A DNA stretch of 37,253 nt from a virus. The stretch lies in the IMG/VR virus record IMGVR_UViG_3300021962_000279, positions 1 to 37,253 of that record; one strand, given 5' to 3'. This document shows positions 2,321 to 14,819 of the stretch, in pieces; within the stretch, counting starts at the first letter, position 1, and each line of letters begins with the position of its first letter. Both the position numbers and the translations under genes were made by a program. Below the pieces are notes generated by a model. The model did not search any database, was not told the DNA's origin, and worked only from the letters and a program-made list of their open reading frames with translations.

Positions 2321-2343
2321 AAAGGAGTAATTTAGAAAAACAA

Positions 2344-2753: not shown

Positions 2754-3033
2754 ACTTCCACCTTTGCCATATTCTCCTCCAGAAGGTTACTATTATGAGT
2801 GCGAAGAGTTCAAGCGAAATGTTGTCAGTATTTGGTTATGCAACACTCGCAAGTTTGTCTATAATGGCGGTGCTCCAACTAGGACCATCCACTCATTCTA
2901 CAACACCAAGACTAGAGAATACTTCGCCCCAATCAATAGTAAGACTATCGGTGCTTGTGTAAATATCAAGGAAACGCGGAACTACACCGCGATGCCAATT
3001 AAACAATCTCCACTAGATGCGTTTTTTGTATGA
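2743..3033 (+). CDS. Conserved phage protein of unknown function (96 aa)
   Basis: I choose ATG 2743 (MTVELPPLPYSPPEGYYYEC) over an in-frame upstream start, because the upstream extension lies in the coiled-coil gene and lacks homologue-like sequence. The C-terminal half (TKTREYFAPINS, then VNIKETRNYTAM and SPLDAFFV) matches a recurring small cyanophage family from memory. It overlaps the next gene by 4 nt (ATGA). Its Cys, Tyr and Trp content suggests a compact beta fold, but the role is unknown. Confidence 0.8.
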   Translation: MTVELPPLPYSPPEGYYYECEEFKRNVVSIWLCNTRKFVYNGGAPTRTIHSFYNTKTREYFAPINSKTIGACVNIKETRNYTAMPIKQSPLDAFFV

Positions 3034-3299
3034 CCTACAATCCACAAGTCAATGATTTTGTTGTATGGAATAATGGTAAAGGTGTTGAAGGATGGGTATA
3101 TTTCAAGTGTGATGAATATATCACCATTGAACACAGTGTTCGTCCTAAAGATGAAATCAACTACCTTGCCTGTTCTATTCACGCAAATGAAAGATTGCTT
3201 GTGATTTGCTACAAAGAACAATGGAAACACTTAGAATACATCAAGTCACGCACATCAATCTATGAAGAAGAGGAAAACTTTTTGGCGATTGCTAGCTAA
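3030..3299 (+). CDS. Conserved phage protein of unknown function (89 aa)
   Basis: ATGA overlap with the previous gene. The N-terminus MTYNPQVNDFVVWNNGKGVE and the strand-rich segment GWVYFKCDEYITIE look like a small beta-barrel or SH3-like fold. Similar proteins occur widely in T4-like cyanophages, often beside the neighbours seen here. It overlaps the next gene by 38 nt. No catalytic motif. Confidence 0.8.
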   Translation: MTYNPQVNDFVVWNNGKGVEGWVYFKCDEYITIEHSVRPKDEINYLACSIHANERLLVICYKEQWKHLEYIKSRTSIYEEEENFLAIAS

Positions 3300-3528
3300 A
3301 TCACTAGGTGAAAAAGCAAGTAAATGTGATAAAGAGGCGGATAAGGTAGCACTTATTCGCCTTATGATGTTTCTGTCTATTTTTATCACCAACTGTTTCA
3401 TTGTGGCAAATGCTGTAAGACATTGGAATGATAAAACAACTGTTGAGGTTGTAATTGATGGTTCTATGTTACCTGATTATCAAACACCACCACCAAGACA
3501 AACAAACAAACCATTTGAGTTTGAATAA
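3262..3528 (+). CDS. Single-pass membrane protein (88 aa)
   Basis: A basic N-terminus (MKKRKTFWRLLAKSLGEKAS) precedes one membrane helix at about residues 31-52 (LIRLMMFLSIFITNCFIVAN). After it comes a short RHWND segment and a Pro-rich tail (PPPRQTNKP). From memory it belongs to a conserved cyanophage family, function unknown. The stop codon TAA is embedded in the late promoter ATAAATA that serves the next gene. Confidence 0.78.
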   Translation: MKKRKTFWRLLAKSLGEKASKCDKEADKVALIRLMMFLSIFITNCFIVANAVRHWNDKTTVEVVIDGSMLPDYQTPPPRQTNKPFEFE

Positions 3529-3531
3529 ATA
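3525..3531 (+). promoter_or_regulatory. T4-type late promoter
   Basis: ATAAATA, 20 nt before ATG 3551. This is the -10 type read by gp55-like late sigma factors. It contains the TAA stop of the upstream gene. Confidence 0.65.
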
Positions 3532-3550
3532 CTCAAAAAGTTCTGCAATA

Positions 3551-3907
3551 ATGAAAACTTTCATTCAATTCTCTGAAGATCTCCAGCAACGAAGACAAGA
3601 ACTTCGCCAGAGACAATTGAAACAAATGGCAGCACATAAAGAGCGTGTTGCTTCACATCAAGCATCTCAAAGAGAGAGACAACAAGCATCAGCAGAAAGA
3701 GAGACATTAAAGAAAGAAATCAAGAGAGAGTTGCAGACAGAACAAACTCCGACAATGGAGCCCAATCTATACAACAAACTAATTGCCAGAAGTCAATTAT
3801 CAAGAAAAAGAGAAAGAGAAAGACATGCTCAGAGAGAAATGGAGCACGAAGCAAGTGCTCAGCAGGCACAAAAAAGGAGAGAGATGAGAGCAATTATGTC
3901 TCGCTAA
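3551..3907 (+). CDS. Gln/Arg/Glu-rich coiled-coil protein, candidate internal virion protein
   Basis: A 118-aa protein; I choose ATG 3551 because the late promoter lies 20 nt upstream and an upstream in-frame start would read through the previous gene. The N-terminus MKTFIQFSEDL resembles the T4 capsid-targeting sequence (IPIII: MKTYQEFIAE), but I see no clean (L/I)-x-E cleavage site of the T4 gp21 type. The rest is an extremely charged helix (QRRQELRQRQLKQ, RERERHAQRE). A late-expressed head or scaffold-associated protein is plausible. Some cyanophage virion proteins share this MKxFxxF start. Confidence 0.75.
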   Translation: MKTFIQFSEDLQQRRQELRQRQLKQMAAHKERVASHQASQRERQQASAERETLKKEIKRELQTEQTPTMEPNLYNKLIARSQLSRKRERERHAQREMEHEASAQQAQKRREMRAIMSR

Positions 3908-3909
3908 TA

Positions 3910-3943
3910 AAAGTTACTCACCTCCAAAGTGGATCTATAATGT
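3910..3943 (+). promoter_or_regulatory. 34-bp repeated promoter-like element, copy 2
   Basis: Two changes from consensus: GGATC for GGACC, and TATAAT for TATAGT. It is thus the only copy with a perfect -10 hexamer. It continues TGTAAGCAAC and precedes ATG 3960. Confidence 0.75.
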
Positions 3944-3959
3944 AAGCAACTCACTTTTT

Positions 3960-4097
3960 ATGGACTGCTTTGATGATCTCCAAATTGAAGAGTTTTCTTC
4001 TTTTGATTTTGTAGAGAAAGTAACTGAAGATCTTTTTGAGGAAGAAGAGAATGATAAATCGTTCAATTCTTATCTTAACTCCAACATTGACTATTGA
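3960..4097 (+). CDS. Small acidic protein (45 aa)
   Basis: MDCFDDLQIEEFSSFDFVEK, then VTEDLFEEEENDKSF. It is very acidic with alternating aromatics, so it might mimic nucleic acid or bind a basic partner, but nothing shows this. It is the only gene between repeat copy 2 and a TTGACA at 4094-4099, which overlaps its stop codon and may be the -35 of the next gene (weak -10 TAAGTC, 17 bp on). Confidence 0.65.
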   Translation: MDCFDDLQIEEFSSFDFVEKVTEDLFEEEENDKSFNSYLNSNIDY

Positions 4098-4157
4098 CAG
4101 TCTCTAAACTGTCCACTAAGTCTCCCACACTGACTACTTTTCCTTTATCATACTCAA

Positions 4158-4358
4158 ATGACCGAACAAATCCCTAACGTGCTTCCTCACATTCGTGATC
4201 TTAAAGATGCTTGGCGGCGGCAGGATTTCACTTTTAGTAAGCAACAACAAGAAGAATACGATCTCTTGCTTGCTACTCGCCGTGAACGTGTGAAGCAATT
4301 CTATGCTGAAGGTCGCGTATTCAAAGGTTCATATAAAGCAAAGGAAGAGGACATCTAA
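4158..4358 (+). CDS. Conserved hypothetical cyanophage protein (66 aa)
   Basis: A helical, charged 66-aa protein. Residues 36-54 (LLLATRRERVKQFYAEGRV) form the recognisable core, which I recall from cyanomyoviruses. No domain of known function. Its TAA stop forms the core of the late promoter CTAAATA (4355-4361). It may be read from a weak promoter with TTGACA at 4094 or by read-through from copy 2. Confidence 0.75.
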   Translation: MTEQIPNVLPHIRDLKDAWRRQDFTFSKQQQEEYDLLLATRRERVKQFYAEGRVFKGSYKAKEEDI

Positions 4359-4361
4359 ATA
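4355..4361 (+). promoter_or_regulatory. T4-type late promoter
   Basis: CTAAATA, 26 nt before ATG 4388 and overlapping the upstream stop codon. CTAAATA is one of the two late core sequences reported for freshwater cyanophage S-CRM01. Confidence 0.65.
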
Positions 4362-4387
4362 CTAAAAAGTAGTGTTTAGATAGAACA

Positions 4388-5089
4388 ATGCGTAGATTTC
4401 AGGAGTTTATGTCTCTTTGTGAAAAAACGGGTATGTTTGGTCATCCCTCTGGTAAATCTGGAGATGCTGCTGGTAAACTAGGTTGGGGTGGTGGTGCAAC
4501 TATCAAAGCTGCACAAGCAGGTGGAAGGATTCGTCCTGAACGCAAAAAGACAGATCCTGAAAAACTTAGAGTAAAAGCAGTTGGTGGCGGCAAGACTGAA
4601 CCAGTTCAGTATAAACCACGCAAGGATATTGGAACTCAACGTCAAGCATCTACAAGAGTTCAACAACCAACACAAGAACGTGGATCTGCTGATGTAAAAG
4701 CAAGAGCAGCAGCAGCGGCAAAAGAAGAAAGAAAGAAAGCAGCACTTGCTAGAATTGCTGCAAAGAAAGCAGGTGCAAAACCTGAAGCAGCAAAACCAAA
4801 AGCAAAGGAAGTTGAGAAGCAAGCATCTAAACTTCTCTCCACAAAGAAACCTGAAGCAGCAAAACCTGCAGCAGCAAAACCACGCAGACAGTGGAAAACT
4901 GAAACTGGTGGTCCTATGACAAGGGCAGAAAGAGATAAAGCAAGAAACAAAGAAAGGGGTGAAGCACTCAAGAAGAGAAAGGCAGAATTGATTAAAGATT
5001 TCACTGAAAAGCATGGTAGAGCACCTAAAGGAACCGAAAGAACTAAACTGCTTGGATTAGCTCATAGCACTGTAAAAGCAGGCGTCTAA
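4388..5089 (+). CDS. Lys/Ala-rich histone-like protein with capsid-targeting-like N-terminus
   Basis: A 233-aa very basic protein. It starts MRRFQEFMSLCEKTG: the first eight residues resemble the T4 internal-protein targeting sequence (MKTYQEFI), and L10-C11-E12 fits the (L/I)-x-E cleavage motif of the gp21 prohead protease. Residues ~95-175 are low-complexity Lys/Ala/Pro (AAAAAKEERKKAALARIAAK, then PEAAKP repeats) like histone H1 tails. The C-terminus is a charged helix. A late promoter precedes it. I infer an internal head protein packaged with DNA; a non-specific DNA-binding late protein is the alternative. The stop codon merges into repeat copy 3. Confidence 0.8.
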   Translation: MRRFQEFMSLCEKTGMFGHPSGKSGDAAGKLGWGGGATIKAAQAGGRIRPERKKTDPEKLRVKAVGGGKTEPVQYKPRKDIGTQRQASTRVQQPTQERGSADVKARAAAAAKEERKKAALARIAAKKAGAKPEAAKPKAKEVEKQASKLLSTKKPEAAKPAAAKPRRQWKTETGGPMTRAERDKARNKERGEALKKRKAELIKDFTEKHGRAPKGTERTKLLGLAHSTVKAGV

Positions 5090-5122
5090 AAGTTACTCAC
5101 CTCCAAAGTGGACCTATAGTAT
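5089..5122 (+). promoter_or_regulatory. 34-bp repeated promoter-like element, copy 3
   Basis: Consensus copy. Its first A is the last base of the upstream TAA stop. It continues ATAGGAACGAC, with ATG 5142 about 20 nt after the repeat. Confidence 0.75.
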
Positions 5123-5141
5123 AGGAACGACACACAACACA

Positions 5142-5297
5142 ATGCTCTGGCAAGATCGTAATGGCAACTGGTTTAGCACTCAATCTCCCATTGATGCTAA
5201 GATCGAACGGGCAATGATTGAAGCAAACGCTAACAAAGTCTGGGAAGAAAAAGAGCGTTCTGGTGATTGGTTGTTTGATGAAATGTTCGGGGGTTGA
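5142..5297 (+). CDS. Small hypothetical protein (51 aa)
   Basis: MLWQDRNGNWFSTQSPIDAK through WLFDEMFGG. A soluble, Trp-rich, charged helix, the only gene between repeat copy 3 and the helicase promoter. I recall short phage proteins with a similar start and a central IERAMIEAN helix, but no function. Confidence 0.65.
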   Translation: MLWQDRNGNWFSTQSPIDAKIERAMIEANANKVWEEKERSGDWLFDEMFGG

Positions 5298-5309
5298 TTA
5301 AACCCCACC

Positions 5310-5345
5310 AGCACGCTTCACAATCGCCTGGAAGCGTGCTATAAT
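5310..5345 (+). promoter_or_regulatory. Sigma-70 promoter with overlapping palindrome (helicase)
   Basis: TTCACA at 5317-5322, a 17-bp spacer and a perfect TATAAT at 5340-5345. A 10-bp perfect inverted repeat, AGCACGCTTC at 5310-5319 and GAAGCGTGCT at 5331-5340, overlaps both boxes. It has no T-tract, so it looks like an operator rather than a terminator. Confidence 0.72.
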
Positions 5346-5386
5346 GCTTTCTAGATACCAAACCACCTGAAACTCTGTAATTCGTA

Positions 5387-6634
5387 ATGTTCTCTGATCT
5401 GATCAAACTTCGCCCTCATCAAGAACGTGGTGTTGCTGCTATGCAACAGCACAACAAGGGTCAAGTCATTGTTCCTACTGGTGGCGGTAAGACGCTGAAG
5501 ATGATCTATGATTGTCTGCGCGAGTTGCAGTCTGAAACCCCCCAGACCATTGTTGTTGTTGCTCCTCGCATCTTGCTTGCTGAGCAACTCTCTTCTGAGT
5601 TCCTGGAGTTTATCACTGACGCTGAAGTTCTGCACGTTCACAGTGGCGAAACTCATCACGTTAGCACTACCAAACCCGCTGACATTGCTGTTCACGCTGG
5701 TATGTGTGCCGCTGCTGGTAAGCATCAACTGATCTTCACTACTTACAACTCTCTTAATCGTCTGCAAGCAGCAGAGATTGATGTGGATACCATTTACTTT
5801 GATGAGGCACATAATTCTGTTCAGCGTCACTTTTTCCCTGCAACTGAGCACTTTGCTGCTAATGCACGTCGCTGCTACTTCTTCACTGCAACTCCCAAAC
5901 ATTCTCTGGCAGTGGGCAAACCTGGCATGAATGATGCTGCTGTTTATGGTCAGGTAATCTGCAAAGTCCCAGCTCCTGAGTTAGTCGAAGGTGGTTACAT
6001 TGTGCCCCCTAAAGTGATCGTCAAGCAACTGGAGATGGTACAGGGCAAGCAGACCAACTTCGACCGCGATGCTGACAATCTGCTGGAAACCATTGATGAC
6101 AATCAAGTCGGCAAGATCCTGATTTGTGCTAAGGCAACCAAGCAAATCGTATCGCTGGTGTCTGAAACTGATTTCTGCACCGAACTAGAGCAACGTGGTT
6201 TCTCTTGGATGTATATCACTGCCAAGACTGGTGCTGTGATTGATGGCAAGAAAGTGAACCGCGAAGTATTCTTCGACACGCTATCTGCCTGGGGTAAGGA
6301 TAACGATAAGAAGTTCGTTGTTCTTCACCACAGTATCCTCGCTGAGGGTATCAATGTGAGCGGTCTGGAAGCAGTGCTGTTCCTGCGTAACATGGACTTC
6401 ATTGGGATTAGTCAGACCATCGGACGTTGCATCCGTCTGCATCACGATGATGCCAAAGGTATGCGCGATGGACGTATCCAACCTGGCAACCTCAGTCAGT
6501 ATAGCAAATCGTTCGGTCTTGTTTGTATCCCTGTGTATTCTAAGGTTGGCATCTCCACCGCCCGTAGTGTGCAAGCAGTTGTTGATACGATCTTCGAGAA
6601 GGGCGAACCTGCCGTGTCGGTGGTTCGCAGGTGA
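5387..6634 (+). CDS. Superfamily 2 DEAH-box helicase (UvsW/HsdR-like)
   Basis: A 415-aa nucleic-acid-dependent ATPase. Visible motifs: a Q-motif-like LRPHQ at 8-12, Walker A PTGGGKT at 30-36, Walker B DEAH at 139-142, motif III TAT at 167-169, motif V LAEGINV at 318-324 and motif VI QTIGRCIR at 343-350 with the arginine finger. It is shorter than T4 UvsW (587 aa) and lacks its N-terminal domain. Likely work: branch migration, R-loop removal or recombination-dependent replication; it could instead act with the nearby nuclease/methylase. It has its own palindrome-overlapped promoter and a visibly higher GC content than the structural genes. Confidence 0.93.
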   Translation: MFSDLIKLRPHQERGVAAMQQHNKGQVIVPTGGGKTLKMIYDCLRELQSETPQTIVVVAPRILLAEQLSSEFLEFITDAEVLHVHSGETHHVSTTKPADIAVHAGMCAAAGKHQLIFTTYNSLNRLQAAEIDVDTIYFDEAHNSVQRHFFPATEHFAANARRCYFFTATPKHSLAVGKPGMNDAAVYGQVICKVPAPELVEGGYIVPPKVIVKQLEMVQGKQTNFDRDADNLLETIDDNQVGKILICAKATKQIVSLVSETDFCTELEQRGFSWMYITAKTGAVIDGKKVNREVFFDTLSAWGKDNDKKFVVLHHSILAEGINVSGLEAVLFLRNMDFIGISQTIGRCIRLHHDDAKGMRDGRIQPGNLSQYSKSFGLVCIPVYSKVGISTARSVQAVVDTIFEKGEPAVSVVRR

Positions 6635-6645
6635 GACCCACCGAG

Positions 6646-6666
6646 ACCCTAGTGGTGGCCTAGGGT
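6646..6666 (+). other. Stem-loop after the helicase gene
   Basis: ACCCTAG at 6646-6652 pairs with CTAGGGT at 6660-6666 around a 7-nt loop. A short T-run occurs only at 6676-6680, 10 nt beyond, so this is at best an imperfect terminator or an mRNA-stabilising hairpin. Confidence 0.4.
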
Positions 6667-6760
6667 CAAAACCCAATTTTTCTGCAATTCTACCGCAGAC
6701 GACCTAGAACCCATCCACCGCAAGGAAATCACTGATTTTTCCCAAAGTATAATCCAGGGC

Positions 6761-6789
6761 TTGACATCCCTACCCAAAGATGTTAAACT
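6761..6789 (+). promoter_or_regulatory. Sigma-70-type promoter before 6840
   Basis: TTGACA at 6761-6766, a 17-bp spacer and TAAACT at 6784-6789. It lies between the helicase gene and the 349-aa gene and overlaps the first in-frame ATG (6780), which is why I place the start at 6840. Confidence 0.68.
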
Positions 6790-6839
6790 TAACCTGCTCA
6801 ATCATTATGATGGGCACACTGTTCACTCGTTTTATTAAA

Positions 6840-7889
6840 ATGAAAAAAGTTAAAGTAACGTCCGACACTAAGATCTCGGAACTGATCGAAGTATCTCAAG
6901 AAGATGGACCTAACTACCCACTACTTTCCTTTAAAGGATTTGGCGTAAGGGTTCCTGACAAAATTATTCCCACAAAAGCAAACTATCCCCGAAAAACAGA
7001 AAGTTCTAAAGGCAATGTTGATGTTTTGATTGCCTCAACTGCTGGGGGTTGGGCTACAAAGTCTTGGCCAATGAGTGTCTTTGTTGGTGAAAGCAAAGAT
7101 GAAGAACTCTTTGACCGCAGGCACACATTAAAGGCAATCAAAGAGAATAAGTATCCTCTTGCTCCAGTTGCTCTCTACGAAAGGAAAAAGACTGGTAATG
7201 TCATCCTTGACAATCTTAAGGAAAGTTCTGTCCTTACCCTGAGTGGATTGTATGCAAATGGAACTGATGGGACTGTCAACTCTGTACAAAACGATTATAT
7301 TAACGCAGTCAAACTTGTAATCGAAGAGAACAACCTTCCTCAAACAAAAGAAGTTGTTGATGAACTTTTGTCCGTAACTGGAGTTGATGAGCGTTATTCT
7401 TATCGCCCAACAATCACATCCATTGTGAATGCTATTCTGGATAAGAAAACAAAATCCACTAAAGTTTTTAACACAACAAAAGAGGAACAAAAAGATTGGA
7501 TTACTTCAAATCCTTTCTTTGGTAACAACAACTACTCGTCTGTAGATGGAGTTGCTGTCAGGAGCAAAGTTCTTGATGGACAGTTCACCTATCGTTACGC
7601 TGGTGACATTCTGAAATGGGCATTTCAAGCGTGGGCTAAGAGTGAGAAAGTTCGTGTCCTAGTTTATAGCAACGCAGAGCACGAAAGTCAAATCGAATCT
7701 GAACGCTCTGAGATTGTAAAAGTGATGGAAGAAATCTTTGTTGGTCCTATCAACTTCTTCAGTCAAAAAATCAGTTCTGTTTTTGGTGGAATGATTACAC
7801 TACCAAAAGTTTCGATCTCTGATCTTCCTCTTGAGATCTGGTCGATGCCTCAAATTGAAGGTGAAACTGAAGCAACCCAGTTGGTATGA
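6840..7889 (+). CDS. Unknown 349-aa protein with a ParB-like FDRRH segment
   Basis: I choose ATG 6840 (MKKVKVTSDTKISELI) because earlier in-frame ATGs lie in the promoter or its immediate leader. I do not recognise the family. Residues 79-113 (SVFVGESKD, then LFDRRHTLKAIKENKY and PVALYE) resemble the DGxHRxxAL plus P-V pattern of ParB/sulfiredoxin-fold proteins, weakly. The C-terminal half is rich in Lys, Ser and aromatics with no catalytic motif I can name. It sits between an SF2 helicase and a nuclease/methylase pair, so a role in DNA metabolism or defence is possible but unproven. ATGA overlap with the next gene. Confidence 0.82.
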   Translation: MKKVKVTSDTKISELIEVSQEDGPNYPLLSFKGFGVRVPDKIIPTKANYPRKTESSKGNVDVLIASTAGGWATKSWPMSVFVGESKDEELFDRRHTLKAIKENKYPLAPVALYERKKTGNVILDNLKESSVLTLSGLYANGTDGTVNSVQNDYINAVKLVIEENNLPQTKEVVDELLSVTGVDERYSYRPTITSIVNAILDKKTKSTKVFNTTKEEQKDWITSNPFFGNNNYSSVDGVAVRSKVLDGQFTYRYAGDILKWAFQAWAKSEKVRVLVYSNAEHESQIESERSEIVKVMEEIFVGPINFFSQKISSVFGGMITLPKVSISDLPLEIWSMPQIEGETEATQLV

Positions 7890-8062
7890 TGGAAGGATTT
7901 ATTGTCGGTAAGGGTAACTATGCTGCCATTCCTTATGGTAAGCAACTGATGGTCATTCACAACGGAGAGCAACTCAAAGTGTGTAGGACTGAAGCATCAG
8001 CTAGAAAGTTCATTGATGCCCACAAAAAGGGTAAATCACTGGGCAAACTTCCTATCAATTAA
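7886..8062 (+). CDS. Small conserved hypothetical protein (58 aa)
   Basis: ATGA overlap with the 349-aa gene. The sequence GFIVGKGNYAAIPYGKQLMV, then IHNGEQLKVCRTEASARKF, ends with a basic helix (HKKGKSLGK). Two beta hairpins followed by a helix is the likely fold. From memory it belongs to a small cyanophage family of unknown function. Its TAA stop overlaps the first bases of repeat copy 4. Confidence 0.72.
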   Translation: MMEGFIVGKGNYAAIPYGKQLMVIHNGEQLKVCRTEASARKFIDAHKKGKSLGKLPIN

Positions 8063-8094
8063 AGTTACTCACCTCTAAAGTGGACCTATAGTAC
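8061..8094 (+). promoter_or_regulatory. 34-bp repeated promoter-like element, copy 4
   Basis: One internal change (CCTCTAAAG for CCTCCAAAG), and GTAC after the -10-like TATA. Its first bases complete the upstream TAA stop. ATG 8109 lies 14 nt after the repeat. Confidence 0.72.
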
Positions 8095-8108
8095 AGCAAC
8101 CAATCAAA

Positions 8109-8669
8109 ATGACCTACCTAGAAGAAAACCTACTGCCGCTGGTTCTGTCTATCAAACCAAAGCAGACCGAATCTTACATTCTTCAGGCACTTGGTCTTGA
8201 TGATCGTGTTTCTCCTCAGTCGATTTTGATTGCTTTCGGTGAGAGAATTGAGCAGTTCTGGAACACTGTTATCAGTGACAGTCTGGCGGCACAAAATCTC
8301 ATCGAAGAAAGCAATCTGATTGATGTGAATGGTCGCACACGTCAGATTGATCATTTGTTCAGAATTGATGAGACTTGGTATCTCGAAAGCAAGTGCAATC
8401 TCAACTTTGATAGTGAGAAAGTTCGTGCATCTAATGACAAGATCAATGACATTACCAGCGTTCTTGGTGTAAATGTCAAGTCTGGATATTTTGTCCCTGT
8501 TGTTGCAGAAGTTAGCAAGAAAGAGAAAACCAAGTATAACAACAAAGGCGTGGAAGTTTATGGTGTGAATTGGATGATTGAGACCATTCAAGCACCTTTC
8601 ACCGCTGAAGAATACTTCACCTTCCTCCGCGAGGTTGTTGCTCCGATCCTTGAAGAAATGGGTCTTTGA
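8109..8669 (+). CDS. Candidate PD-(D/E)XK restriction-type endonuclease
   Basis: A 186-aa soluble protein. The central segment RQIDHLFRIDETWYLESKCN places D81, E93 and K95 as a D-x11-E-x-K catalytic set, typical of the PD-(D/E)XK fold. A helix with E45 and E49 precedes it, as in many type II enzymes. A strand (SGYFVPVV) and a C-terminal helix follow. Its direct neighbour is a Dam-type adenine methylase, which suggests the nuclease half of a type II restriction-modification pair. An orphan phage nuclease is the alternative. No helicase or target-recognition domain is attached. It is headed by repeat copy 4. Confidence 0.72.
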   Translation: MTYLEENLLPLVLSIKPKQTESYILQALGLDDRVSPQSILIAFGERIEQFWNTVISDSLAAQNLIEESNLIDVNGRTRQIDHLFRIDETWYLESKCNLNFDSEKVRASNDKINDITSVLGVNVKSGYFVPVVAEVSKKEKTKYNNKGVEVYGVNWMIETIQAPFTAEEYFTFLREVVAPILEEMGL

Positions 8670-8678
8670 TGGTATAAT
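8650..8678 (+). promoter_or_regulatory. Extended -10 promoter for the methyltransferase, inside the nuclease gene
   Basis: TTGAAG at 8650-8655, a 17-bp spacer, then TGG and TATAAT at 8673-8678 (extended -10). It overlaps the 3' end of the nuclease gene and is 22 nt from ATG 8700. Confidence 0.65.
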
Positions 8679-8699
8679 TAAGAGAAAGATTGAGTACCT

Positions 8700-9524
8700 A
8701 TGAAACCAATCATCTGTCTAAAACCTGTTGTAAAATATATGGGTGGCAAGAGTAAAGAATTGCCACTCATCAAACAAATGCTACCATCACAGTTTTCAAG
8801 GGTTGTAGAACCCTTCTGTGGTGGTGCTGCAGTATCATTTGGGTTGGGTTATCCTGCTCTGATGAGTGACATCAATCGCGATGTCATTAACTTATACTCC
8901 GTGGTCGCAAATGAGGATCTTTATCCTCAACTACAAGTAAAGGTTGATTGTATCAAAGGACTGGAGCATGATGATCTTCAGAAAGAGTTTTATGCTGCGC
9001 GAGAAGCAATCAATCAATCATGGGATTGTGTAGATCAACTCCAGAGAGCATTGTCATACATTATTGTACGACAGTTGTGTTTCTCTGGAATGGAAAGATA
9101 CAATGCCAAAGGTGAGTTTAATGTACCCTTCGGTCACTATAAACGATTTTCGTGCAATTTGACCCCAGATCATCACAATTTCCTGAAGAAGCAATGTGTA
9201 TTCCGATATGGGTCATTTGTGGATCTGTTTGGTGAAATCAATGCAGATGACTTTGTGTTCATTGATCCTCCCTATCTTGAGCGACTAGGATACACTGAGG
9301 GTGATGGTGGTTCAAGACTACATGAAGACCTTTTAGGTTGTCTGAAAGCAACAAAGGGTAAATGGATGATTGTTCACTCTGACCATGAGTTCTATCGAGA
9401 GAGTTACAAAGACTTCAATATTATCGAGAAGGACTTTGCTTATGCTCAACGATTTGGTAAGGGAAAGGATCACTCTGGAGCTAAAGTAAAGCACCTTTAT
9501 ATCACAAACTACGAAACAAATTAA
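8700..9524 (+). CDS. dam: DNA adenine N6-methyltransferase (Dam / D12 class)
   Basis: A 274-aa S-adenosylmethionine-dependent adenine methylase. Motif X-like KYMGGKSKEL at 12-21, SAM-binding EPFCGGAA at 37-44, SDINRDVINLY at 56-66, the class-typical RYNAKGEFNVPFGHYK at 133-148 and catalytic DPPY at 189-192 are all present, in the order of the alpha-class D12 family (Dam, DpnM, EcoRV methylase). Length fits the family. The target is probably GATC or a related site, but specificity cannot be read from sequence. It may protect phage DNA from host enzymes or from the nuclease encoded just upstream. Own promoter at 8650-8678; the TAA stop runs into repeat copy 5. Confidence 0.93.
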   Translation: MKPIICLKPVVKYMGGKSKELPLIKQMLPSQFSRVVEPFCGGAAVSFGLGYPALMSDINRDVINLYSVVANEDLYPQLQVKVDCIKGLEHDDLQKEFYAAREAINQSWDCVDQLQRALSYIIVRQLCFSGMERYNAKGEFNVPFGHYKRFSCNLTPDHHNFLKKQCVFRYGSFVDLFGEINADDFVFIDPPYLERLGYTEGDGGSRLHEDLLGCLKATKGKWMIVHSDHEFYRESYKDFNIIEKDFAYAQRFGKGKDHSGAKVKHLYITNYETN

Positions 9525-9556
9525 AGTTACTCACCTCCAAAGTGGACCTATAGTGT
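9523..9556 (+). promoter_or_regulatory. 34-bp repeated promoter-like element, copy 5
   Basis: Consensus copy. Its first bases complete the TAA stop of dam. A GC-rich hairpin, GTGGGGA and TCCCCAC around TCGC (9555-9572), follows TATAGT immediately. Confidence 0.75.
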
Positions 9557-9592
9557 GGGGATCGCTCCCCACCGCAGTTTCTAACCCAAACT

Positions 9593-9859
9593 ATGACTTT
9601 TTACTGGACTTTCGTTGATACTCTTGTCAAGAACGTTGCTACCATCTCTGCCATCTTTGTTGGCGTAGTTCAGTTCTTCATTCGTTCATTCAATGAGAAC
9701 GATGGTGCAAACAAAGTTCGCAAGTTTGTAAATCAAACTCTGTTTGTTATGAATCGTTTCACTGCATTTGTTTATGAGGTTGTCAATGCAAATGTGTTGC
9801 CTCCTGTTGATACTCAAGCAGTGAAAGTTACCAAAACCAGCAAGCGTCGTTCCGCTTGA
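9593..9859 (+). CDS. Small membrane-associated protein (88 aa)
   Basis: A hydrophobic stretch at residues ~13-31 (VKNVATISAIFVGVVQFFIR) looks like one membrane helix. A soluble part with aromatics and a strongly basic C-terminus (KTSKRRSA) follow. First gene after repeat copy 5; the leader is GC-rich and structured. No family function known. Confidence 0.7.
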   Translation: MTFYWTFVDTLVKNVATISAIFVGVVQFFIRSFNENDGANKVRKFVNQTLFVMNRFTAFVYEVVNANVLPPVDTQAVKVTKTSKRRSA

Positions 9860-9870
9860 TAAACTGCCAC

Positions 9871-9900
9871 AGGAGCACTTGCTTTTATGCTTGTGCTCCT
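9871..9900 (+). terminator. Possible weak terminator
   Basis: AGGAGCAC at 9871-9878 pairs with GTGCTCCT at 9893-9900, with an inner GC/GC pairing in the loop. The T-tract is poor (TTTATTGT), so termination is likely partial. It lies between 9593 and 9929. Confidence 0.4.
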
Positions 9901-9928
9901 TTATTGTACCTTTGTTCCTGAAACTCCA

Positions 9929-10132
9929 ATGATCTTCGTTACTTCTGCCAACCACGGTTGTGTTTATACTCTGTCGCAAGAAGATGGAGATGAGCTATAC
10001 TATGCTCCCATCTATTCCGATGGTAGTGTAAATCTTGAAGAGTTTGCTCCTGTAGATTTTGATGCTGTAGATATGGATGATATGGAACTCTTTGATATTC
10101 GCAATCGTCTACAGAAACTGATGGAAGTTTGA
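9929..10132 (+). CDS. Conserved hypothetical cyanophage protein (67 aa)
   Basis: Start chosen at ATG 9929 (MIFVTSANHGCVYTLSQEDG); an upstream in-frame ATG would run through the hairpin at 9871-9900 and adds no homologue-like sequence. The protein is a beta-rich N-terminus followed by an extremely acidic segment (VDFDAVDMDDMELFD). I recall similar short proteins in many T4-like cyanophages. Function unknown; acidity could reflect DNA mimicry, which is speculative. Confidence 0.75.
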   Translation: MIFVTSANHGCVYTLSQEDGDELYYAPIYSDGSVNLEEFAPVDFDAVDMDDMELFDIRNRLQKLMEV

Positions 10133-10139
10133 GGCAATA

Positions 10140-10173
10140 AAAGTTACTCACCTTCAAAGTGGACCTATAGTAT
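10140..10173 (+). promoter_or_regulatory. 34-bp repeated promoter-like element, copy 6
   Basis: One change (CCTTCAAAG). The ATG of the next gene begins directly after TATAGT (10172), inside the repeat. Confidence 0.75.
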
Positions 10174-11068
10174 GAAGAACACTCACCTAGAACACCCTGA
10201 AGATCAGATCCTCACGGGTGATCTTTCTGTACTTGATTGGTTCAGTGCTGATTCTACTATCAGTGTCAAGATTGATGGTGCTCCTGCTATTGTTTGGGGT
10301 CGCAATCCTGCCAATGGTAAGTTCTTCGTTGGCACTAAATCTGTCTTCAACAAAGTAAAGATCAAGATCAATCATTCACACGATGAAATTGATGCGAACC
10401 ATGAAGGTAAAGTTGCGTCTATTCTTCATGCTTGCCTTGATTATCTTCCTCGCACAGATTATATCTTTCAAGGGGATTTTATTGGTTTTGGCGGTTCTGA
10501 TACTTTTCGCCCCAATACGATCACTTACAAGTTCCCTGAGGTAGTAGATCAAGAGATCATTATTGCTCCTCATACATTCTACATTGCAGAGAATGATCTG
10601 AGGGATGCTGTTGCGTATCCGATGAACTTTATCATCACGGATACTCATTATGTCAAGTTTGTGTCTCCTAAGGCATCTATTTGCCCTCATCGTGAGGACA
10701 TCGAAGACATCTGCAAGTTTGCTAAGCAAATGAGCACTCTTTGTGAGTTTGTAAGCAACAAACAAGCAACAGAACTCAAAAAAATCATCAATTCCTACAT
10801 CCGTGAGGGTAAGGAGGTGGATGAACATGAAATTGCAGAAAATTATGATGTTGACATCAACCTGCTGCGTTTGTGGAAGTTAATGTATTCAATCAAGGTA
10901 GATTTGTTCTTCTTCATTCACACTGATGATAGCATTTCGTGCAAGATTGGTGATGATGAGAGTGATCACGAAGGTTATGTTATGTCAAACGATTATGGCA
11001 CAATGAAGATTGTTGATCGCTACCAATTCAGTCGCGCAAACTTCAATATGGCAAAGAATTGGGCTTGA
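10172..11068 (+). CDS. Nucleotidyltransferase / ATP-dependent ligase-like protein
   Basis: A 298-aa protein with hallmarks of the covalent nucleotidyltransferase superfamily (DNA/RNA ligases, capping enzymes). Motif I is K33-I-D35-G36 in SVKIDGAPAIVWG, with K33 as the predicted nucleotidyl-accepting lysine. A motif III-like IFQGDFIGFG sits at 98-107, motif IV-like EGYV at 267-270 and a motif V-like lysine K279 in TMKIVDRY. The segment FFVGTKSVFNK at 51-61 is shared with a phage family I recall as DUF6267. The substrate, RNA or DNA, is unknown. The only usable start lies directly after TATAGT of repeat copy 6, inside the element. Confidence 0.82.
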   Translation: MKNTHLEHPEDQILTGDLSVLDWFSADSTISVKIDGAPAIVWGRNPANGKFFVGTKSVFNKVKIKINHSHDEIDANHEGKVASILHACLDYLPRTDYIFQGDFIGFGGSDTFRPNTITYKFPEVVDQEIIIAPHTFYIAENDLRDAVAYPMNFIITDTHYVKFVSPKASICPHREDIEDICKFAKQMSTLCEFVSNKQATELKKIINSYIREGKEVDEHEIAENYDVDINLLRLWKLMYSIKVDLFFFIHTDDSISCKIGDDESDHEGYVMSNDYGTMKIVDRYQFSRANFNMAKNWA

Positions 11069-11070
11069 TT

Positions 11071-11104
11071 AAAGTTACTCACCTCCAAAGTGGACCTATA
11101 GTAT
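11071..11104 (+). promoter_or_regulatory. 34-bp repeated promoter-like element, copy 7
   Basis: Consensus copy, preceded by TGATT from the upstream stop. ATG 11103 follows TATAGT directly. Confidence 0.75.
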
Positions 11105-11537
11105 GAGCACTCTTACAATGCAAGCACAAGCACAACAAACCATTGCAGAGAATGTGTATAAGAACACTCTGCTGCTGATTGAAGCATTGAAAGACAATTA
11201 TCGTCAGTATTCTATTCGTGGACACCAACGTTCTGCTGAAAGGTTTGATGCAATTCCTGGTTATCATCAGCAGAAGATTGAAGAACTCAAGTCTGGCAAG
11301 TGTGACATTGATTATCAGGTAGAAACTGGTAAAAAGTATCACAAAGTCATTCTCGTGAATGGTGGTGGATCGCGTAGTGTTCATTGCTTCATTGATAAGC
11401 AAACTGGCGAAGTGTATAAGTCTGCCACTTGGAGATCTCCTGCGAAAGGTGTTCGCTATGATCTGCGATTGATCAAAGATCGTGAGTATCTGCTGGAAAA
11501 TGCAGATTGGAGCGGGGGGTATTTGTACGCCAAATGA
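11103..11537 (+). CDS. Conserved phage protein of unknown function (144 aa)
   Basis: Residues 74-115 (VETGKKYHKVILVNGGG, then SRSVHCFIDKQTGEVYK and ATWRSPAKGVRYDL) form a recognisable family found in many phages: a beta-sheet domain with a conserved SVH-F-D--TG-V-K pattern. The N-terminal ~55 residues are helical. Function is not known. ATG 11103 is part of repeat copy 7; if TATAGT is a true -10, the mRNA would begin near 11109 and Met6 (11118) would be the first usable start. ATGA overlap with the next gene. Confidence 0.82.
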   Translation: MSTLTMQAQAQQTIAENVYKNTLLLIEALKDNYRQYSIRGHQRSAERFDAIPGYHQQKIEELKSGKCDIDYQVETGKKYHKVILVNGGGSRSVHCFIDKQTGEVYKSATWRSPAKGVRYDLRLIKDREYLLENADWSGGYLYAK

Positions 11538-11710
11538 ACTATCTTTGTTTTGTTGATGGTTTGCTAGAATATGCTAGCACCAGTCCCTCAAACTTCGCAC
11601 ATTATCAGTTAATGTATGCTGAAGAGCATAGAAATGCTGATGTTCAGTATCTTACTCTGACTGATGAAGAATACGACGAAATGTTCCCTTATGAAGAGGA
11701 TGAAGAGTGA
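11534..11710 (+). CDS. Small acidic protein (58 aa)
   Basis: Start ATG 11534 overlaps the previous TGA (ATGA). MNYLCFVDGLLEYASTSPSN leads to a strongly acidic C-terminus (TDEEYDEMFPYEEDEE). Soluble, no motif recognised. Overlaps the next gene in a GTGA arrangement. Confidence 0.68.
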   Translation: MNYLCFVDGLLEYASTSPSNFAHYQLMYAEEHRNADVQYLTLTDEEYDEMFPYEEDEE

Positions 11711-11964
11711 GCACAAAACCTGACACTGAAATGACTTACGATGAACAAATTAAAGAAATGACTGTCACAAAGTCTCTCAAACTTCTGCGTGATGGGTTCA
11801 AGAATGAACTTGCCACTGCTTTATTCGCAGATGAGCGCACAACTGAACTCTTTGCTCAACTGATTAGTGAGTTTGTAGAGGCAAACATTCCTGTGGTTGA
11901 TGATGAGAACCAGATGGAACTTTCGATGATGTTGTTGGAAACTCTGGACATTGTAGCACGATGA
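11707..11964 (+). CDS. Conserved hypothetical helical protein (85 aa)
   Basis: I accept the GTG start at 11707 because GTGA overlaps the upstream stop; ATG 11731 is the alternative. Core residues 17-63 (MTVTKSLKLLRDGFKNELAT, then FAQLISEFVEANIPVVDDEN) are fully helical and match, from memory, a small cyanophage family. Function unknown. ATGA overlap with the gene at 11961. Confidence 0.75.
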   Translation: MSTKPDTEMTYDEQIKEMTVTKSLKLLRDGFKNELATALFADERTTELFAQLISEFVEANIPVVDDENQMELSMMLLETLDIVAR

Positions 11965-12215
11965 CTTACTCTAACCTCTCAAAGATAAAGCCCAAACTGA
12001 GAACAACTGGGCGTGTGTCTGGTAACTTTGGTAAATCGAAAGTTGTTGCAGGTTCATCACTCAATGAGATCGGTGGAAATGGTAACATTGGTGCAACACA
12101 AGATGAATACCTAAACCGATTATATTATGCTTTTGATAACACTACCGAACCTAAACTTCGTCAGTTTCTTTATCAAGAGATCCGTAAAATCCACGTCCAG
12201 AGAGGCACTTGGTAA
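11961..12215 (+). CDS. Small hypothetical protein (84 aa)
   Basis: ATGA overlap with the previous gene; last of the four-gene group behind repeat copy 7. The N-terminal half is basic and Gly/Ser-rich, probably disordered (RVSGNFGKSKVVAGSS). The C-terminal half is a helix (QDEYLNRLYYAFDN, RQFLYQEIRKIHVQ). No known domain. Confidence 0.7.
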   Translation: MTYSNLSKIKPKLRTTGRVSGNFGKSKVVAGSSLNEIGGNGNIGATQDEYLNRLYYAFDNTTEPKLRQFLYQEIRKIHVQRGTW

Positions 12216-12224
12216 CAGGGAATA

Positions 12225-12258
12225 AAAGTTACTCACCTCCAAAGTGGACCTATAGTAT
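12225..12258 (+). promoter_or_regulatory. 34-bp repeated promoter-like element, copy 8
   Basis: Consensus copy. ATG 12257 follows TATAGT directly. Confidence 0.75.
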
Positions 12259-12499
12259 GAGCACAACCACTGAAATGGATCAAGTCTTTCACTATGTCAC
12301 AAACTGGAAAGAAGGTAAAGTGATGCAAATGTTCATTCAACAAATCACTCCCGAGTATCAAGAATGTGACCACAAATACGTTGCTATTGCTCTCAATCCT
12401 GTAACTAACAAGAGCATGGTAATGTCTAATCCTCGCAGTCATTATGACACTTTGCAGTGGGTTCGTAAGTTCTGCGGTTCTTTCTCTCTTCTGTACTGA
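12257..12499 (+). CDS. Small hypothetical protein (80 aa)
   Basis: The start at 12257 is inside repeat copy 8; an in-frame start at 12209 would read through the repeat and is rejected. If the repeat is a promoter, Met7 (12275, MDQVFHYVTNWKEGKV) is an alternative start. The body has alternating strands (MQMFIQQITPEYQ, YVAIALNPVTNKSMVM). Function unknown. Confidence 0.7.
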   Translation: MSTTTEMDQVFHYVTNWKEGKVMQMFIQQITPEYQECDHKYVAIALNPVTNKSMVMSNPRSHYDTLQWVRKFCGSFSLLY

Positions 12500-12501
12500 T
12501 T

Positions 12502-12669
12502 ATGAACAACTATCGTCTCTTGATTGAGTATTGGGTTCCTGATGAAGATGAGAACCTTTATGAGGAAAAGTTGATTCAATCGCGTTCATCTTGTGGTAAA
12601 ATCGCTGATGATTACCTAGCACAAGATCGCACAAATCTTATCCGTTCTGTTGAAGTTTTTCCTGTTTGA
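12502..12669 (+). CDS. Small hypothetical protein (55 aa)
   Basis: Begins 2 nt after the previous stop. MNNYRLLIEYWVPDEDENLY followed by a helix (GKIADDYLAQDR) and a strand. Compact alpha/beta, soluble. Not recognised. Confidence 0.68.
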   Translation: MNNYRLLIEYWVPDEDENLYEEKLIQSRSSCGKIADDYLAQDRTNLIRSVEVFPV

Positions 12670-12671
12670 TT

Positions 12672-12863
12672 ATGACTGACGGTTACACTTTCACTCGCGT
12701 TGACTTCACTCCAAACGAAGAGACTTGCATCCTTAAGTTTCTTGTTGAAGCACAAAATCGTGACCTAATTAAAGATAAAGAATGGCAACCTGTAATCACT
12801 TCCATTCTGCAAAAGTTTTTCAATTCTAACATCAAAGAAGCACAGGAGTTTCAAACACTATGA
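12672..12863 (+). CDS. Small hypothetical protein (63 aa)
   Basis: ATG 12672 (MTDGYTFTRVDFTPNEETCI) chosen over a TTG two codons upstream. Mainly helical after residue 20 (LKFLVEAQNRDLIKDKEW). It overlaps the next ATG in the ATGA manner. Function unknown. Confidence 0.68.
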   Translation: MTDGYTFTRVDFTPNEETCILKFLVEAQNRDLIKDKEWQPVITSILQKFFNSNIKEAQEFQTL

Positions 12864-13003
12864 AATACGAAGTTCAACTCTACGTCGGTGGCAAAGTCTT
12901 CAAAGAGGAAGTATATGCTAACTCTCCAAAAGATGCCCGTGAGACAGCACAAATCAGAAACCCGACTGCTAAAATTGTTGGAGTGAATGTATCGTTCAAA
13001 TGA
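12860..13003 (+). CDS. Small conserved cyanophage protein (47 aa)
   Basis: MKYEVQLYVGGKVFKEEVYA, then NSPKDARETAQIRNP and AKIVGVNVSFK: a beta-beta-alpha-beta unit that, from memory, is nearly invariant among T4-like cyanophages. This suggests a selected but unknown function. Last of the group behind repeat copy 8. Its TGA stop touches an ATAAATA motif (13003-13009). Confidence 0.75.
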   Translation: MKYEVQLYVGGKVFKEEVYANSPKDARETAQIRNPTAKIVGVNVSFK

Positions 13004-13041
13004 TAAATAATGGTGCTTATGTTTGGTCGCACAAGCACATT

Positions 13042-13066
13042 AGAGGGGCAGAAATGTCCCTCTTTT
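13042..13066 (+). terminator. Intrinsic terminator candidate
   Basis: AGAGGG at 13042-13047 and CCCTCT at 13058-13063 around a 10-nt loop, ending in TTTT. It would end the copy-8 operon just before the late promoter. Confidence 0.55.
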
Positions 13067-13068
13067 GA

Positions 13069-13076
13069 TATAAATA
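13069..13076 (+). promoter_or_regulatory. T4-type late promoter (full TATAAATA)
   Basis: Exact T4 late consensus TATAAATA, 24 nt before ATG 13101. A second ATAAATA lies at 13003-13009 on the preceding stop codon. Confidence 0.62.
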
Positions 13077-13100
13077 ATAAAGACCAAACATAAAGCAGTT

Positions 13101-13556
13101 ATGAATAAAGTAAGCGTTCAATCGTTGAACGAATGTTTCAACGTATCTGGCATAGATTACATTGAGATGCCAGATGGATGGGAGAAAATGTATGATGATT
13201 GTACTTTTGAATTGCAGAGCAGAGCGGGGAGAATAGGAGGAAAGATTGGCGGCCCAAAAGGTGCAAGAACACAGATAGAAAATAAGATTGGAATGTATGC
13301 AAGAAGTAAAGAACAGTTGAGCATTGATAATGCTAAAGGTGGAAAAATAATGGGAGAAAGACATTATCAAAACAAAACTGGTTTGTTTGGTATGAGTGAG
13401 GAAGATAAGAAAAAAGCACAAACAAATGGCGGTAAAGTTGTTGGCAATCAACGATGGAAATGTTTAATCACAGGAAAGATTTCTAACGCAGGAGCATTGA
13501 CAAGTTATCAAAGAGTAAGAGGAATTGATATATCGCAGAGGGTAAGAATTGATTGA
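13101..13556 (+). CDS. NUMOD-like DNA-binding protein, homing-endonuclease relative
   Basis: A 151-aa basic protein. Residues ~43-115 carry repeated GG-x2-GG-type units (GRIGGKIGGPKGARTQ, NAKGGKIMGERHYQNKTGLF, TNGGKVVGNQRWKCL) with NK-G-(M/L)F spacers. The C-terminus is CLITGKISNAGALTSYQRVR plus GID, a tail I recall from phage HNH/GIY-YIG-associated modular DNA-binding proteins. I see no HNH, GIY-YIG or LAGLIDADG catalytic motif, so it is either a free-standing binding protein or a homing endonuclease that lost its nuclease half. Unlike its neighbours, it has its own late promoter and terminator. Confidence 0.75.
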   Translation: MNKVSVQSLNECFNVSGIDYIEMPDGWEKMYDDCTFELQSRAGRIGGKIGGPKGARTQIENKIGMYARSKEQLSIDNAKGGKIMGERHYQNKTGLFGMSEEDKKKAQTNGGKVVGNQRWKCLITGKISNAGALTSYQRVRGIDISQRVRID

Positions 13557-13559
13557 ATA

Positions 13560-13593
13560 AAAGTTACTCACCTCCAAAGTGGACCTATAGTAT
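13560..13593 (+). promoter_or_regulatory. 34-bp repeated promoter-like element, copy 9
   Basis: Consensus copy, 4 nt after the upstream stop; continues ATAGGACAC. ATG 13618 lies 25 nt beyond the repeat. Confidence 0.75.
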
Positions 13594-13617
13594 AGGACAC
13601 AAACGAAAAACGACTAA

Positions 13618-13953
13618 ATGACTGCTCACTTCGCAAATCTCTTCGCTCAGAATACTGATCTCACTGCTAAGTTTGTAACTGATTTCAAGCGTACTTTCAA
13701 GAGCAATACTTTCGATAAGTACACGCGAAATGACGGAAAAGTTTACATCAAGCACAGTGTAGATCGTGATACGAAAGATGATGTATTCTCTGTCGAAGCA
13801 ATGATTTATGAGTACAAAGGTTGCTGGTCTGGTAGTCAGAAATCCTTTGGCAGTTTTAATAACTTTGCTGATGCAATCTCTTGTGCTCGTAATGTGCAAC
13901 TGTCTGAAGATAGCATCAGCGAGGATGAAGCACTTTCTCTGATGCGTAACTGA
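13618..13953 (+). CDS. Hypothetical protein (111 aa)
   Basis: The only gene behind repeat copy 9. It has a helical N-terminus (LFAQNTDLTAKFVTDFKR) and a beta-rich middle (GKVYIKHSVDRD, FSVEAMIYEYKGCWSGSQ). The C-terminus is acidic (SEDSISEDEALSLMRN). No signal peptide or catalytic motif. Not recognised. Confidence 0.75.
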   Translation: MTAHFANLFAQNTDLTAKFVTDFKRTFKSNTFDKYTRNDGKVYIKHSVDRDTKDDVFSVEAMIYEYKGCWSGSQKSFGSFNNFADAISCARNVQLSEDSISEDEALSLMRN

Positions 13954-13968
13954 AACTCTCCGTCAATT

Positions 13969-14002
13969 AAAGTTACTCACCTCCAAAGTGGACCTATAGT
14001 AT
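13969..14002 (+). promoter_or_regulatory. 34-bp repeated promoter-like element, copy 10
   Basis: Consensus copy. ATG 14001 follows TATAGT directly. Confidence 0.75.
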
Positions 14003-14270
14003 GACCAACACTCAAACCGCGATGATCGAGTTTCCTACTCTCCAGTCTAAAGATGGCACAATGATCGTCGGTTTCTATCCCATTGAGGATTGTTCCAACT
14101 ATACTCTCAAGGTTCTCTCTTGGAAGGGTATTGATACGATCTCTCAAAAGTGTCTGACCAAAAAAGATGCACAACGCGAGATCAATGATCGCCTGGCACT
14201 TGAATATGTGATCACTGGTGATAACATTGGTCTGGTGCAAGAATACAACTTCATGGCAGGTGCAGTTTGA
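14001..14270 (+). CDS. Small hypothetical protein (89 aa)
   Basis: The ATG at 14001 is inside repeat copy 10. Met8 (14022, MIEFPTLQSKDGTMIVGFYP) could be the true start if transcription begins about 7 nt after TATAGT. The body has strands (MIVGFYPIEDCSNYTLKVLS) and a helix with a KKDAQREINDR segment. Function unknown. The stop overlaps the next ATG. Confidence 0.74.
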   Translation: MTNTQTAMIEFPTLQSKDGTMIVGFYPIEDCSNYTLKVLSWKGIDTISQKCLTKKDAQREINDRLALEYVITGDNIGLVQEYNFMAGAV

Positions 14271-14440
14271 TGACAAAAACCACTCTTACTTTTGAAGAGA
14301 TTGATGCACTTCTCAAGTTCATTGAGTTTCATACTGATAACTTCGTAAGTGATGAAGATGCTGATGAATTAAATGAGTTAGTCGGCACAGATGTCGATGC
14401 ACTCTATAACAAACTTTCCGAAATGCAAGACGAAGTATGA
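14270..14440 (+). CDS. Small acidic helical protein (56 aa)
   Basis: ATG overlaps the last A of the preceding TGA. All-helical and acidic (LTFEEIDALLKFIEFHTDNF, then DADELNELVGTDVDAL). Followed by another ATGA overlap. It resembles small cyanophage proteins of unknown role. Confidence 0.68.
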   Translation: MTKTTLTFEEIDALLKFIEFHTDNFVSDEDADELNELVGTDVDALYNKLSEMQDEV

Positions 14441-14601
14441 AACATTCAAACACAGTTCGTATCATTGACAAACTGGGATTGTTTCCTGAGACAAGAGGAA
14501 AAGCACGTTATATTTCAGTCAAGACATACAATCATGCAATGGAGATTGTAGACGAACAAAATCAGTTAGGTAACATTGCAACACTGATTAACTGGGAATA
14601 A
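14437..14601 (+). CDS. Small basic hypothetical protein (54 aa)
   Basis: ATGA overlap upstream. MKHSNTVRIIDKLGLFPETR, then GKARYISVKTYNHAMEIV: a small alpha/beta protein. Its TAA stop ends on the first base of repeat copy 11. Confidence 0.68.
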   Translation: MKHSNTVRIIDKLGLFPETRGKARYISVKTYNHAMEIVDEQNQLGNIATLINWE

Positions 14602-14634
14602 AAGTTACTCACCTCCAAAGTGGACCTATAGTAT
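14601..14634 (+). promoter_or_regulatory. 34-bp repeated promoter-like element, copy 11
   Basis: Consensus copy. It holds both the end of the upstream TAA stop and the downstream ATG (14633): the most compact gene junction of the set. Confidence 0.75.
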
Positions 14635-14815
14635 GAGCAACACTTCAATCGACTTTCAAACCGACATTACTCCTGCACTTCTGGAGTTTATGTGCAACAA
14701 TCACACAGATCTGAATGATTGTGTAGACTTTGTTTGCTGTCTTTTCGATCTTGATGCAACTGATGAATTGATTGATTATGTTGCAGAAGAGTTCGATACT
14801 TTCTTTGGTAACTGA
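14633..14815 (+). CDS. Small acidic protein (60 aa)
   Basis: Start ATG 14633 lies in repeat copy 11; the next in-frame Met is residue 20 (14690), preceded by GGAG. Very acidic and helical with several Cys (DCVDFVCCLFDLDATDELID). Not recognised. The next gene starts 4 nt after the stop. Confidence 0.68.
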   Translation: MSNTSIDFQTDITPALLEFMCNNHTDLNDCVDFVCCLFDLDATDELIDYVAEEFDTFFGN

Positions 14816-14819
14816 TACA

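What the first reader, a model, noticed from the sequence alone, without database searches (positions are those of the whole stretch)
8109..9524. Candidate phage-encoded type II restriction-modification pair
A 186-aa protein with a D81-x11-E93-x-K95 PD-(D/E)XK signature lies directly before a D12-class adenine methylase with all its motifs. Phages often carry orphan methylases; a compact nuclease plus methylase next to each other is much rarer. It could attack host DNA or a competing phage while protecting its own.
Basis: partly seen in the sequence, partly recalled or inferred. Interest (0 to 1): 0.68.

Follow-up and report, generated by a model that had tools for sequence, protein, structure and literature searches.

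The report
Cyanophage-encoded restriction-modification gene pair
A virus of marine cyanobacteria carries, side by side, a predicted DNA-cutting enzyme and the DNA-marking enzyme that would shield the virus's own DNA, a pairing kept together across dozens of related viruses and rarely reported in phages.

Summary
ORF 8109-8669 (186 aa) belongs to a phage-only family of unknown function (phrog_26553). D81, E93 and K95, plus E48, Q79, D101 and K104, are invariant down to about 36% identity. Its confident AlphaFold model matches PD-(D/E)XK nucleases, including the type II enzyme EcoO109I. Divergent members hit a type II REase profile and, weakly, the HinfI family. ORF 8700-9524 is an intact D12 (Dam/DpnII-class) adenine methylase.

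The pairing is conserved. In 46 of 59 evaluable unique loci the nuclease adjoins the D12 methylase: 37 in this order, 9 reversed, many with start-stop overlap. Partners also change: one family member sits between two N6_N4 methylases, and homologous D12 methylases elsewhere follow other nuclease-like genes, including in T-even phages near ndd.

Best reading: a type II-like restriction-modification pair that probably cuts unmethylated host (or rival) DNA while methylation shields the phage. Activity, target site (GATC is my guess) and role are untested. Type II REases are stated to be rare on phages, and cyanomyoviruses lack T4's denA, denB and ndd, so the pair is a testable candidate for their missing host-DNA-degradation route.

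The parts
8109..8669 (+). Candidate restriction endonuclease, 186 aa, phrog_26553; PD-(D/E)XK fold
   Evidence: dN/dS about 0.05
8250..8252 (+). E48 codon, invariant glutamate on the first long helix
8349..8351 (+). D81 codon, predicted catalytic aspartate (RQID)
   Evidence: Invariant in 25 of 25
8385..8393 (+). E93-S-K95 codons, predicted catalytic E-x-K on the strand after D81
   Evidence: E93 and K95 invariant in 25 of 25; strand 89-94 in the model
8700..9524 (+). D12-class N6-adenine DNA methylase, 274 aa (true start possibly near 8718)
   Evidence: PF02086 1.1e-40; TIGR00571 1.5e-50; 2dpm M1.DpnII 6.5e-30; alignment A2
9264..9275 (+). DPPY catalytic motif of the methylase (residues 189-192)
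   Evidence: Invariant in 21 sequences
8061..8092 (+). Promoter-like 32-nt repeat upstream of the nuclease gene (one mismatch to the common form)
   Evidence: promoter role is inferred
9523..9554 (+). Next copy of the 32-nt repeat, overlapping the methylase stop codon; suggests the two genes form one transcription unit
   Evidence: inference

Best explanation
The two genes are a phage-encoded type II-like restriction-modification pair. The 186-aa protein is a PD-(D/E)XK endonuclease, probably a homodimer, that cuts a short palindromic site when the site is unmethylated. The D12 methylase puts N6-methyladenine on that site in phage DNA. The most likely benefit is degrading the host chromosome, for nucleotide salvage and shutdown of host transcription, while phage DNA stays intact, as chloroviruses are believed to do. 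Shown here: predicted fold, invariant catalytic residues, purifying selection, conserved linkage and partner exchange. Inferred: cleavage, site specificity, methylation of the same site, and the biological role. The confidence given is for the R-M pair itself; I put about 0.5 on host DNA as the main target.
For: AlphaFold model pLDDT 88.5, pTM 0.84; Foldseek matches to PD-(D/E)XK nucleases Card1, Cdn1, EndoMS, XisH, EcoO109I, N.BspD6I. D81/E93/K95/E48/Q79/D101/K104 invariant in 25 sequences. 6 of 25 divergent members match a PADLOC type II REase profile, best 6e-5; L082 member matches the HinfI family, 1e-3. 46 of 59 evaluable unique loci adjoin a D12 methylase in two gene orders. L082 member lies between two N6_N4 methylases. 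Homologous methylases elsewhere follow other nuclease-like genes. dN/dS about 0.05. Host-degradation role: cyanomyoviruses lack denA, denB and ndd (PMC2984593); chlorovirus precedent (PMC7019647); T-even analogue near ndd.
Against: No activity data. PDB matches have modest TM-scores (0.34-0.49) and the top ones are not type II REases. The HinfI-family hit is far below its cut-off (18 vs 175 bits). 12 unique D12 methylase loci and 13 nuclease loci lack the partner next door, though many records are fragments. Site avoidance gave no support for GATC.
Confidence: 0.85

Rival explanations
1. The pair is a restriction-modification system whose main target is competing or superinfecting phages and plasmids, not the host chromosome.
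For: Same gene evidence as the best explanation; the changing nuclease partners would fit an arms race between phages.
Against: In chloroviruses the REases were found not responsible for mutual exclusion (PMC7019647). In T-even phages the analogous pair lies near ndd, a host nucleoid-disruption gene. Relatives sharing the same methylase would be immune.
Confidence: 0.28
2. The nuclease is a recombination or repair enzyme (structure-specific, like Hjc or EndoMS) that merely neighbours a methylase.
For: Foldseek also matches EndoMS and XisH; the UvsW-like helicase gene lies nearby at 5387-6634.
Against: Linkage is to DNA methylases of two unrelated classes and persists when gene order flips. Divergent members match type II REase profiles. 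The family is sporadic, found in only 6 records of 50,697 phages, all cyanophage, unlike core repair genes.
Confidence: 0.1
3. The methylase is an orphan that protects against host restriction and the upstream gene is an inactive or unrelated remnant.
For: Orphan-type DNA adenine methylases are common in cyanophages: 55 of 153 genomes annotated with one (PMC10452541). 12 unique methylase loci lack this nuclease.
Against: The nuclease evolves under strong purifying selection, dN/dS about 0.05 against about 0.10 for the methylase; no internal stops in the first 31 loci; catalytic residues invariant.
Confidence: 0.05

Closest known systems
Chlorovirus type II R-M systems (e.g. CviAII of PBCV-1)
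   Same: Virus-encoded REase and methylase genes adjacent to one another; REases thought to degrade host DNA while methylation protects the virus (PMC7019647)
   Different: Viruses of eukaryotic algae; some REases are packaged in the virion (unknown here); no sequence relationship tested
DpnII/Dam-type D12 methylases (M1.DpnII, E. coli Dam)
   Same: P0002 is a clear homologue: 2dpm 6.5e-30, TIGR00571 1.5e-50
   Different: Partner nuclease has no detected sequence similarity to any PDB chain; GATC specificity untested
HinfI-family type II REases (NF045831 / PADLOC PDLC03491)
   Same: Divergent members match the profile over the active site (6e-5 PADLOC, 1e-3 NCBIfam); the L082 member sits with two N6_N4 methylases
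   Different: Far below the family's cut-off; the window's own protein does not match; 186 aa against 264 profile positions; partner is a D12 methylase
T4 host-DNA degradation genes (denA, denB, ndd)
   Same: Proposed purpose: destroy host DNA and spare modified phage DNA; T-even analogue of the pair lies near ndd
   Different: T4 protects with modified cytosine (own knowledge), not adenine methylation; cyanomyoviruses lack these genes (PMC2984593)

Membership tests
PD-(D/E)XK nuclease superfamily | alpha-beta-beta-beta-alpha-beta core | tested here: met
   Model pTM 0.84 with H36-57, strands 70-73/76-79/82-85/89-94, H102-119, E123-128; PDB matches are superfamily members
PD-(D/E)XK nuclease superfamily | Conserved D...(D/E)-x-K residues | tested here: met
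   D81, E93, K95 invariant in 25 sequences
PD-(D/E)XK nuclease superfamily | Metal-dependent DNA cleavage | not testable with these tools
   Needs biochemistry
D12-class N6-adenine DNA methylase | Family profile plus motif I and DPPY | tested here: met
D12-class N6-adenine DNA methylase | Recognition of GATC, as in Dam and DpnII | tested here: inconclusive
   Closest structures are GATC enzymes, but GATC frequency was uninformative
Type II restriction-modification system | REase and cognate methylase genes linked | tested here: met
   46 of 59 evaluable unique loci, two gene orders
Type II restriction-modification system | Nuclease cuts a specific unmethylated site | not testable with these tools
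   Needs biochemistry
Type II restriction-modification system | Methylase protects the same site | not testable with these tools
   Needs biochemistry or methylome data
HinfI-family REase (NF045831) | Score above the curated cut-off (175 bits) | tested here: not met
   Best member 18.3 bits; the window's protein does not match

The most novel reading that the evidence does not exclude
A D12-methylase cassette with interchangeable nuclease partners serves lytic T4-like phages (cyanomyoviruses and some T-evens) as a methylation-guided system for destroying the host genome, filling the place of denA and denB in cyanophages. Lytic phages would then use restriction-modification offensively, with a restriction-enzyme family of their own.
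Probability: 0.45. Interest if true: 0.78.

Novelty: new variant of a known kind. Interest (0 to 1): 0.62.

Why it matters
Type II restriction enzymes are described as rarely occurring on bacteriophages (PMC4081073), and how cyanomyoviruses degrade host DNA without denA, denB and ndd is stated as open (PMC2984593). Here is a nuclease family seen only in phages, present in several dozen viral contigs and in two cultured cyanophages (S-CAM8, S-WAM2), kept beside a protective methylase. If active, it offers a directly testable route for host genome breakdown in cyanophages, a source of new restriction enzymes, and a function for phrog_26553.

Tried and rejected
Motif alone as evidence: rejected, since 58% of shuffles contain a generic PD-(D/E)XK-like spacing. 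Recognition site from site avoidance: GATC is not avoided in loci with or without a methylase; AGCT and CATG are depleted in many but do not follow presence of the methylase. Cellular origin: two scans of 84,980 prokaryote species genomes and two plasmid searches found no relative, though the genome scans rely on short conserved peptides and could miss remote ones. Sequence hits to solved structures: none meaningful for the nuclease. Profile comparison A3 vs A5 was discarded as circular because A5 contained family members; the clean comparison is.

Full report
The window is a 37,253-base virus record, most likely from a T4-like marine cyanophage; that assignment is inferred from the relatives S-CAM8 and S-WAM2, both Kyanoviridae, and from a DNA helicase gene at 5387 (phrog_16) that I take to be UvsW-like. 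ORF 8109-8669 and ORF 8700-9524 lie on the + strand, 30 nt apart. A 32-nt promoter-like repeat lies just upstream of the first (8061-8092) and another overlaps the stop of the second (9523-9554); 13 such copies occur in the window. The two genes therefore look like one transcription unit.

The downstream gene is a D12-class N6-adenine methylase: PF02086 1.1e-40, Dam subfamily TIGR00571 1.5e-50 above cut-off, closest solved structures M1.DpnII 2dpm and E. coli Dam, with motif I and DPPY intact in 21 sequences.

The upstream protein has no meaningful Pfam, NCBIfam, PADLOC or PDB sequence hit and belongs to phrog_26553, unknown function. The D-x11-E-x-K pattern alone means little (5% of shuffles have the exact spacing, 58% a generic one). 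Three lines of evidence make it a nuclease. First, relatives from viral contigs keep D81, E93, K95, E48, Q79, D101 and K104 without exception in a 25-sequence alignment that spans the family and two type C relatives described below. Second, AlphaFold gives a confident model (pLDDT 88.5, pTM 0.84) whose best solved-structure matches are PD-(D/E)XK enzymes: Card1, Cdn1, EndoMS, XisH, EcoO109I, N.BspD6I. The TM-scores are modest, as is usual in this divergent superfamily. Third, 6 of 25 sequences match a PADLOC type II REase profile (best 6e-5) and one matches the HinfI-family profile across the active site (1e-3, far below its cut-off). Five close relatives show pairwise dN/dS of 0.01-0.11, so the protein is under strong purifying selection.

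Linkage. Among 63 distinct nuclease sequences, 59 have enough flank to judge; 46 adjoin a D12 methylase, 37 with the nuclease first and 9 with the methylase first, often with 4- or 5-nt overlaps. These sequences share ancestry, so this is not 46 independent events, but the two gene orders and the partner changes below are separate events. Of the loci without an adjacent D12 methylase, one (L082, 43-44% identity) lies between two PF01555 N6_N4 methylases, and two (L016, and L073, the longer relative of L072) have a D12 methylase elsewhere in the same record. Most of the others are incomplete records and stay undecided.

Partner exchange seen from the methylase side. A scan with the methylase alignment gave 37 distinct loci with this nuclease upstream and 12 without. 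In several loci lacking this nuclease the same slot holds another nuclease-like gene. Type C (L198, L199, L206) keeps Q-x-D and E-x-K and is a remote relative of our family (hhalign probability 92%, E 6e-7 on clean profiles). Type B (L175, L220, L227) is not related to ours by profile, shows weak similarity to BanI and UpaP162 restriction enzymes, and its moderate-confidence model (pLDDT 73, pTM 0.64) resembles XisH, EcoT38I and BstEII; its D/E position reads N (INSK), so its activity is less certain. In the T-even phages KP179 and STML-198 a methylase 47-49% identical to ours directly follows a 205-210-aa PD-(D/E)XK-like protein (weak Hjc, Cas4 and DruK hits), close to ndd. Whether that protein and cyanophage type B share ancestry is unclear (19-24% identity).

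Mechanism. The simplest account is a type II-like R-M pair: the nuclease cuts a short unmethylated site and the methylase protects the phage genome. The target site is not established. Kinship to DpnII and Dam suggests GATC, but GATC is common in the window (165 copies, observed/expected 0.83) and its frequency does not separate loci with and without a nearby methylase. The likely victim is the host chromosome: chloroviruses are believed to use packaged REases this way, and their REases do not explain virus exclusion (PMC7019647); cyanomyoviruses lack denA, denB and ndd, and an undescribed route of host DNA degradation has been suggested (PMC2984593). This role is inference.

Novelty. Type II REases are said to be rare on bacteriophages (PMC4081073). 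The nuclease family appears restricted to phages (no relative in scans of prokaryote genomes or plasmids) and is annotated 'hypothetical protein' in S-CAM8 and S-WAM2, next to 'DNA adenine methylase'. My searches of the open-access library brought up no paper describing the pair; I read only passages of a few papers, and subscription journals are mostly not covered. I rate it a new variant of a known kind.

Noticed in passing
window 1248-16554, 13 copies: A near-identical 32-nt element AAAGTTACTCACCTCCAAAGTGGACCTATAGT, all on the + strand, mostly just upstream of ORFs and only in the first 17 kb; it has a TATAGT box and an inner inverted repeat TCCA-AAG-TGGA. Probably a phage promoter with an operator. 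Among fetched loci its exact core occurs only in near-identical contigs.
   Followed up: partly
window 1-37253 and most related loci: AGCT (18 seen, 73 expected) and CATG (33 seen, 112 expected) are strongly depleted in the window; AGCT is depleted in most related loci too. The cause is unknown; it could reflect host restriction.
   Followed up: partly
L023 1256-2749: The ORF just upstream of the nuclease gene contains a second nuclease-like start (MNYLNETLLPLIEGIKP), so this contig seems to carry two tandem copies.
   Followed up: no
L092 1885-3337 and L093 1887-3346: In T-even phages KP179 and STML-198 an unannotated PD-(D/E)XK-like gene directly precedes a D12 methylase, close to ndd: a second candidate phage R-M pair.
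   Followed up: partly
L235 4220-4768: A 183-aa ORF with a D...E-x-K pattern (DFEWEDKKIELKMGK) follows a methylase and helicase in a contig lacking the nuclease family; no Pfam hit.
   Followed up: no
L198 82-1418: An N6_N4 methylase (PF01555, 5e-30) and a 205-aa ORF with no Pfam hit lie upstream of a type C nuclease plus D12 methylase, possibly a second R-M pair in the same contig.
   Followed up: no
window 22328-34276: A single ORF of 3982 aa following shorter structural-looking ORFs, rich in repeated segments; probably a giant structural protein.
   Followed up: no
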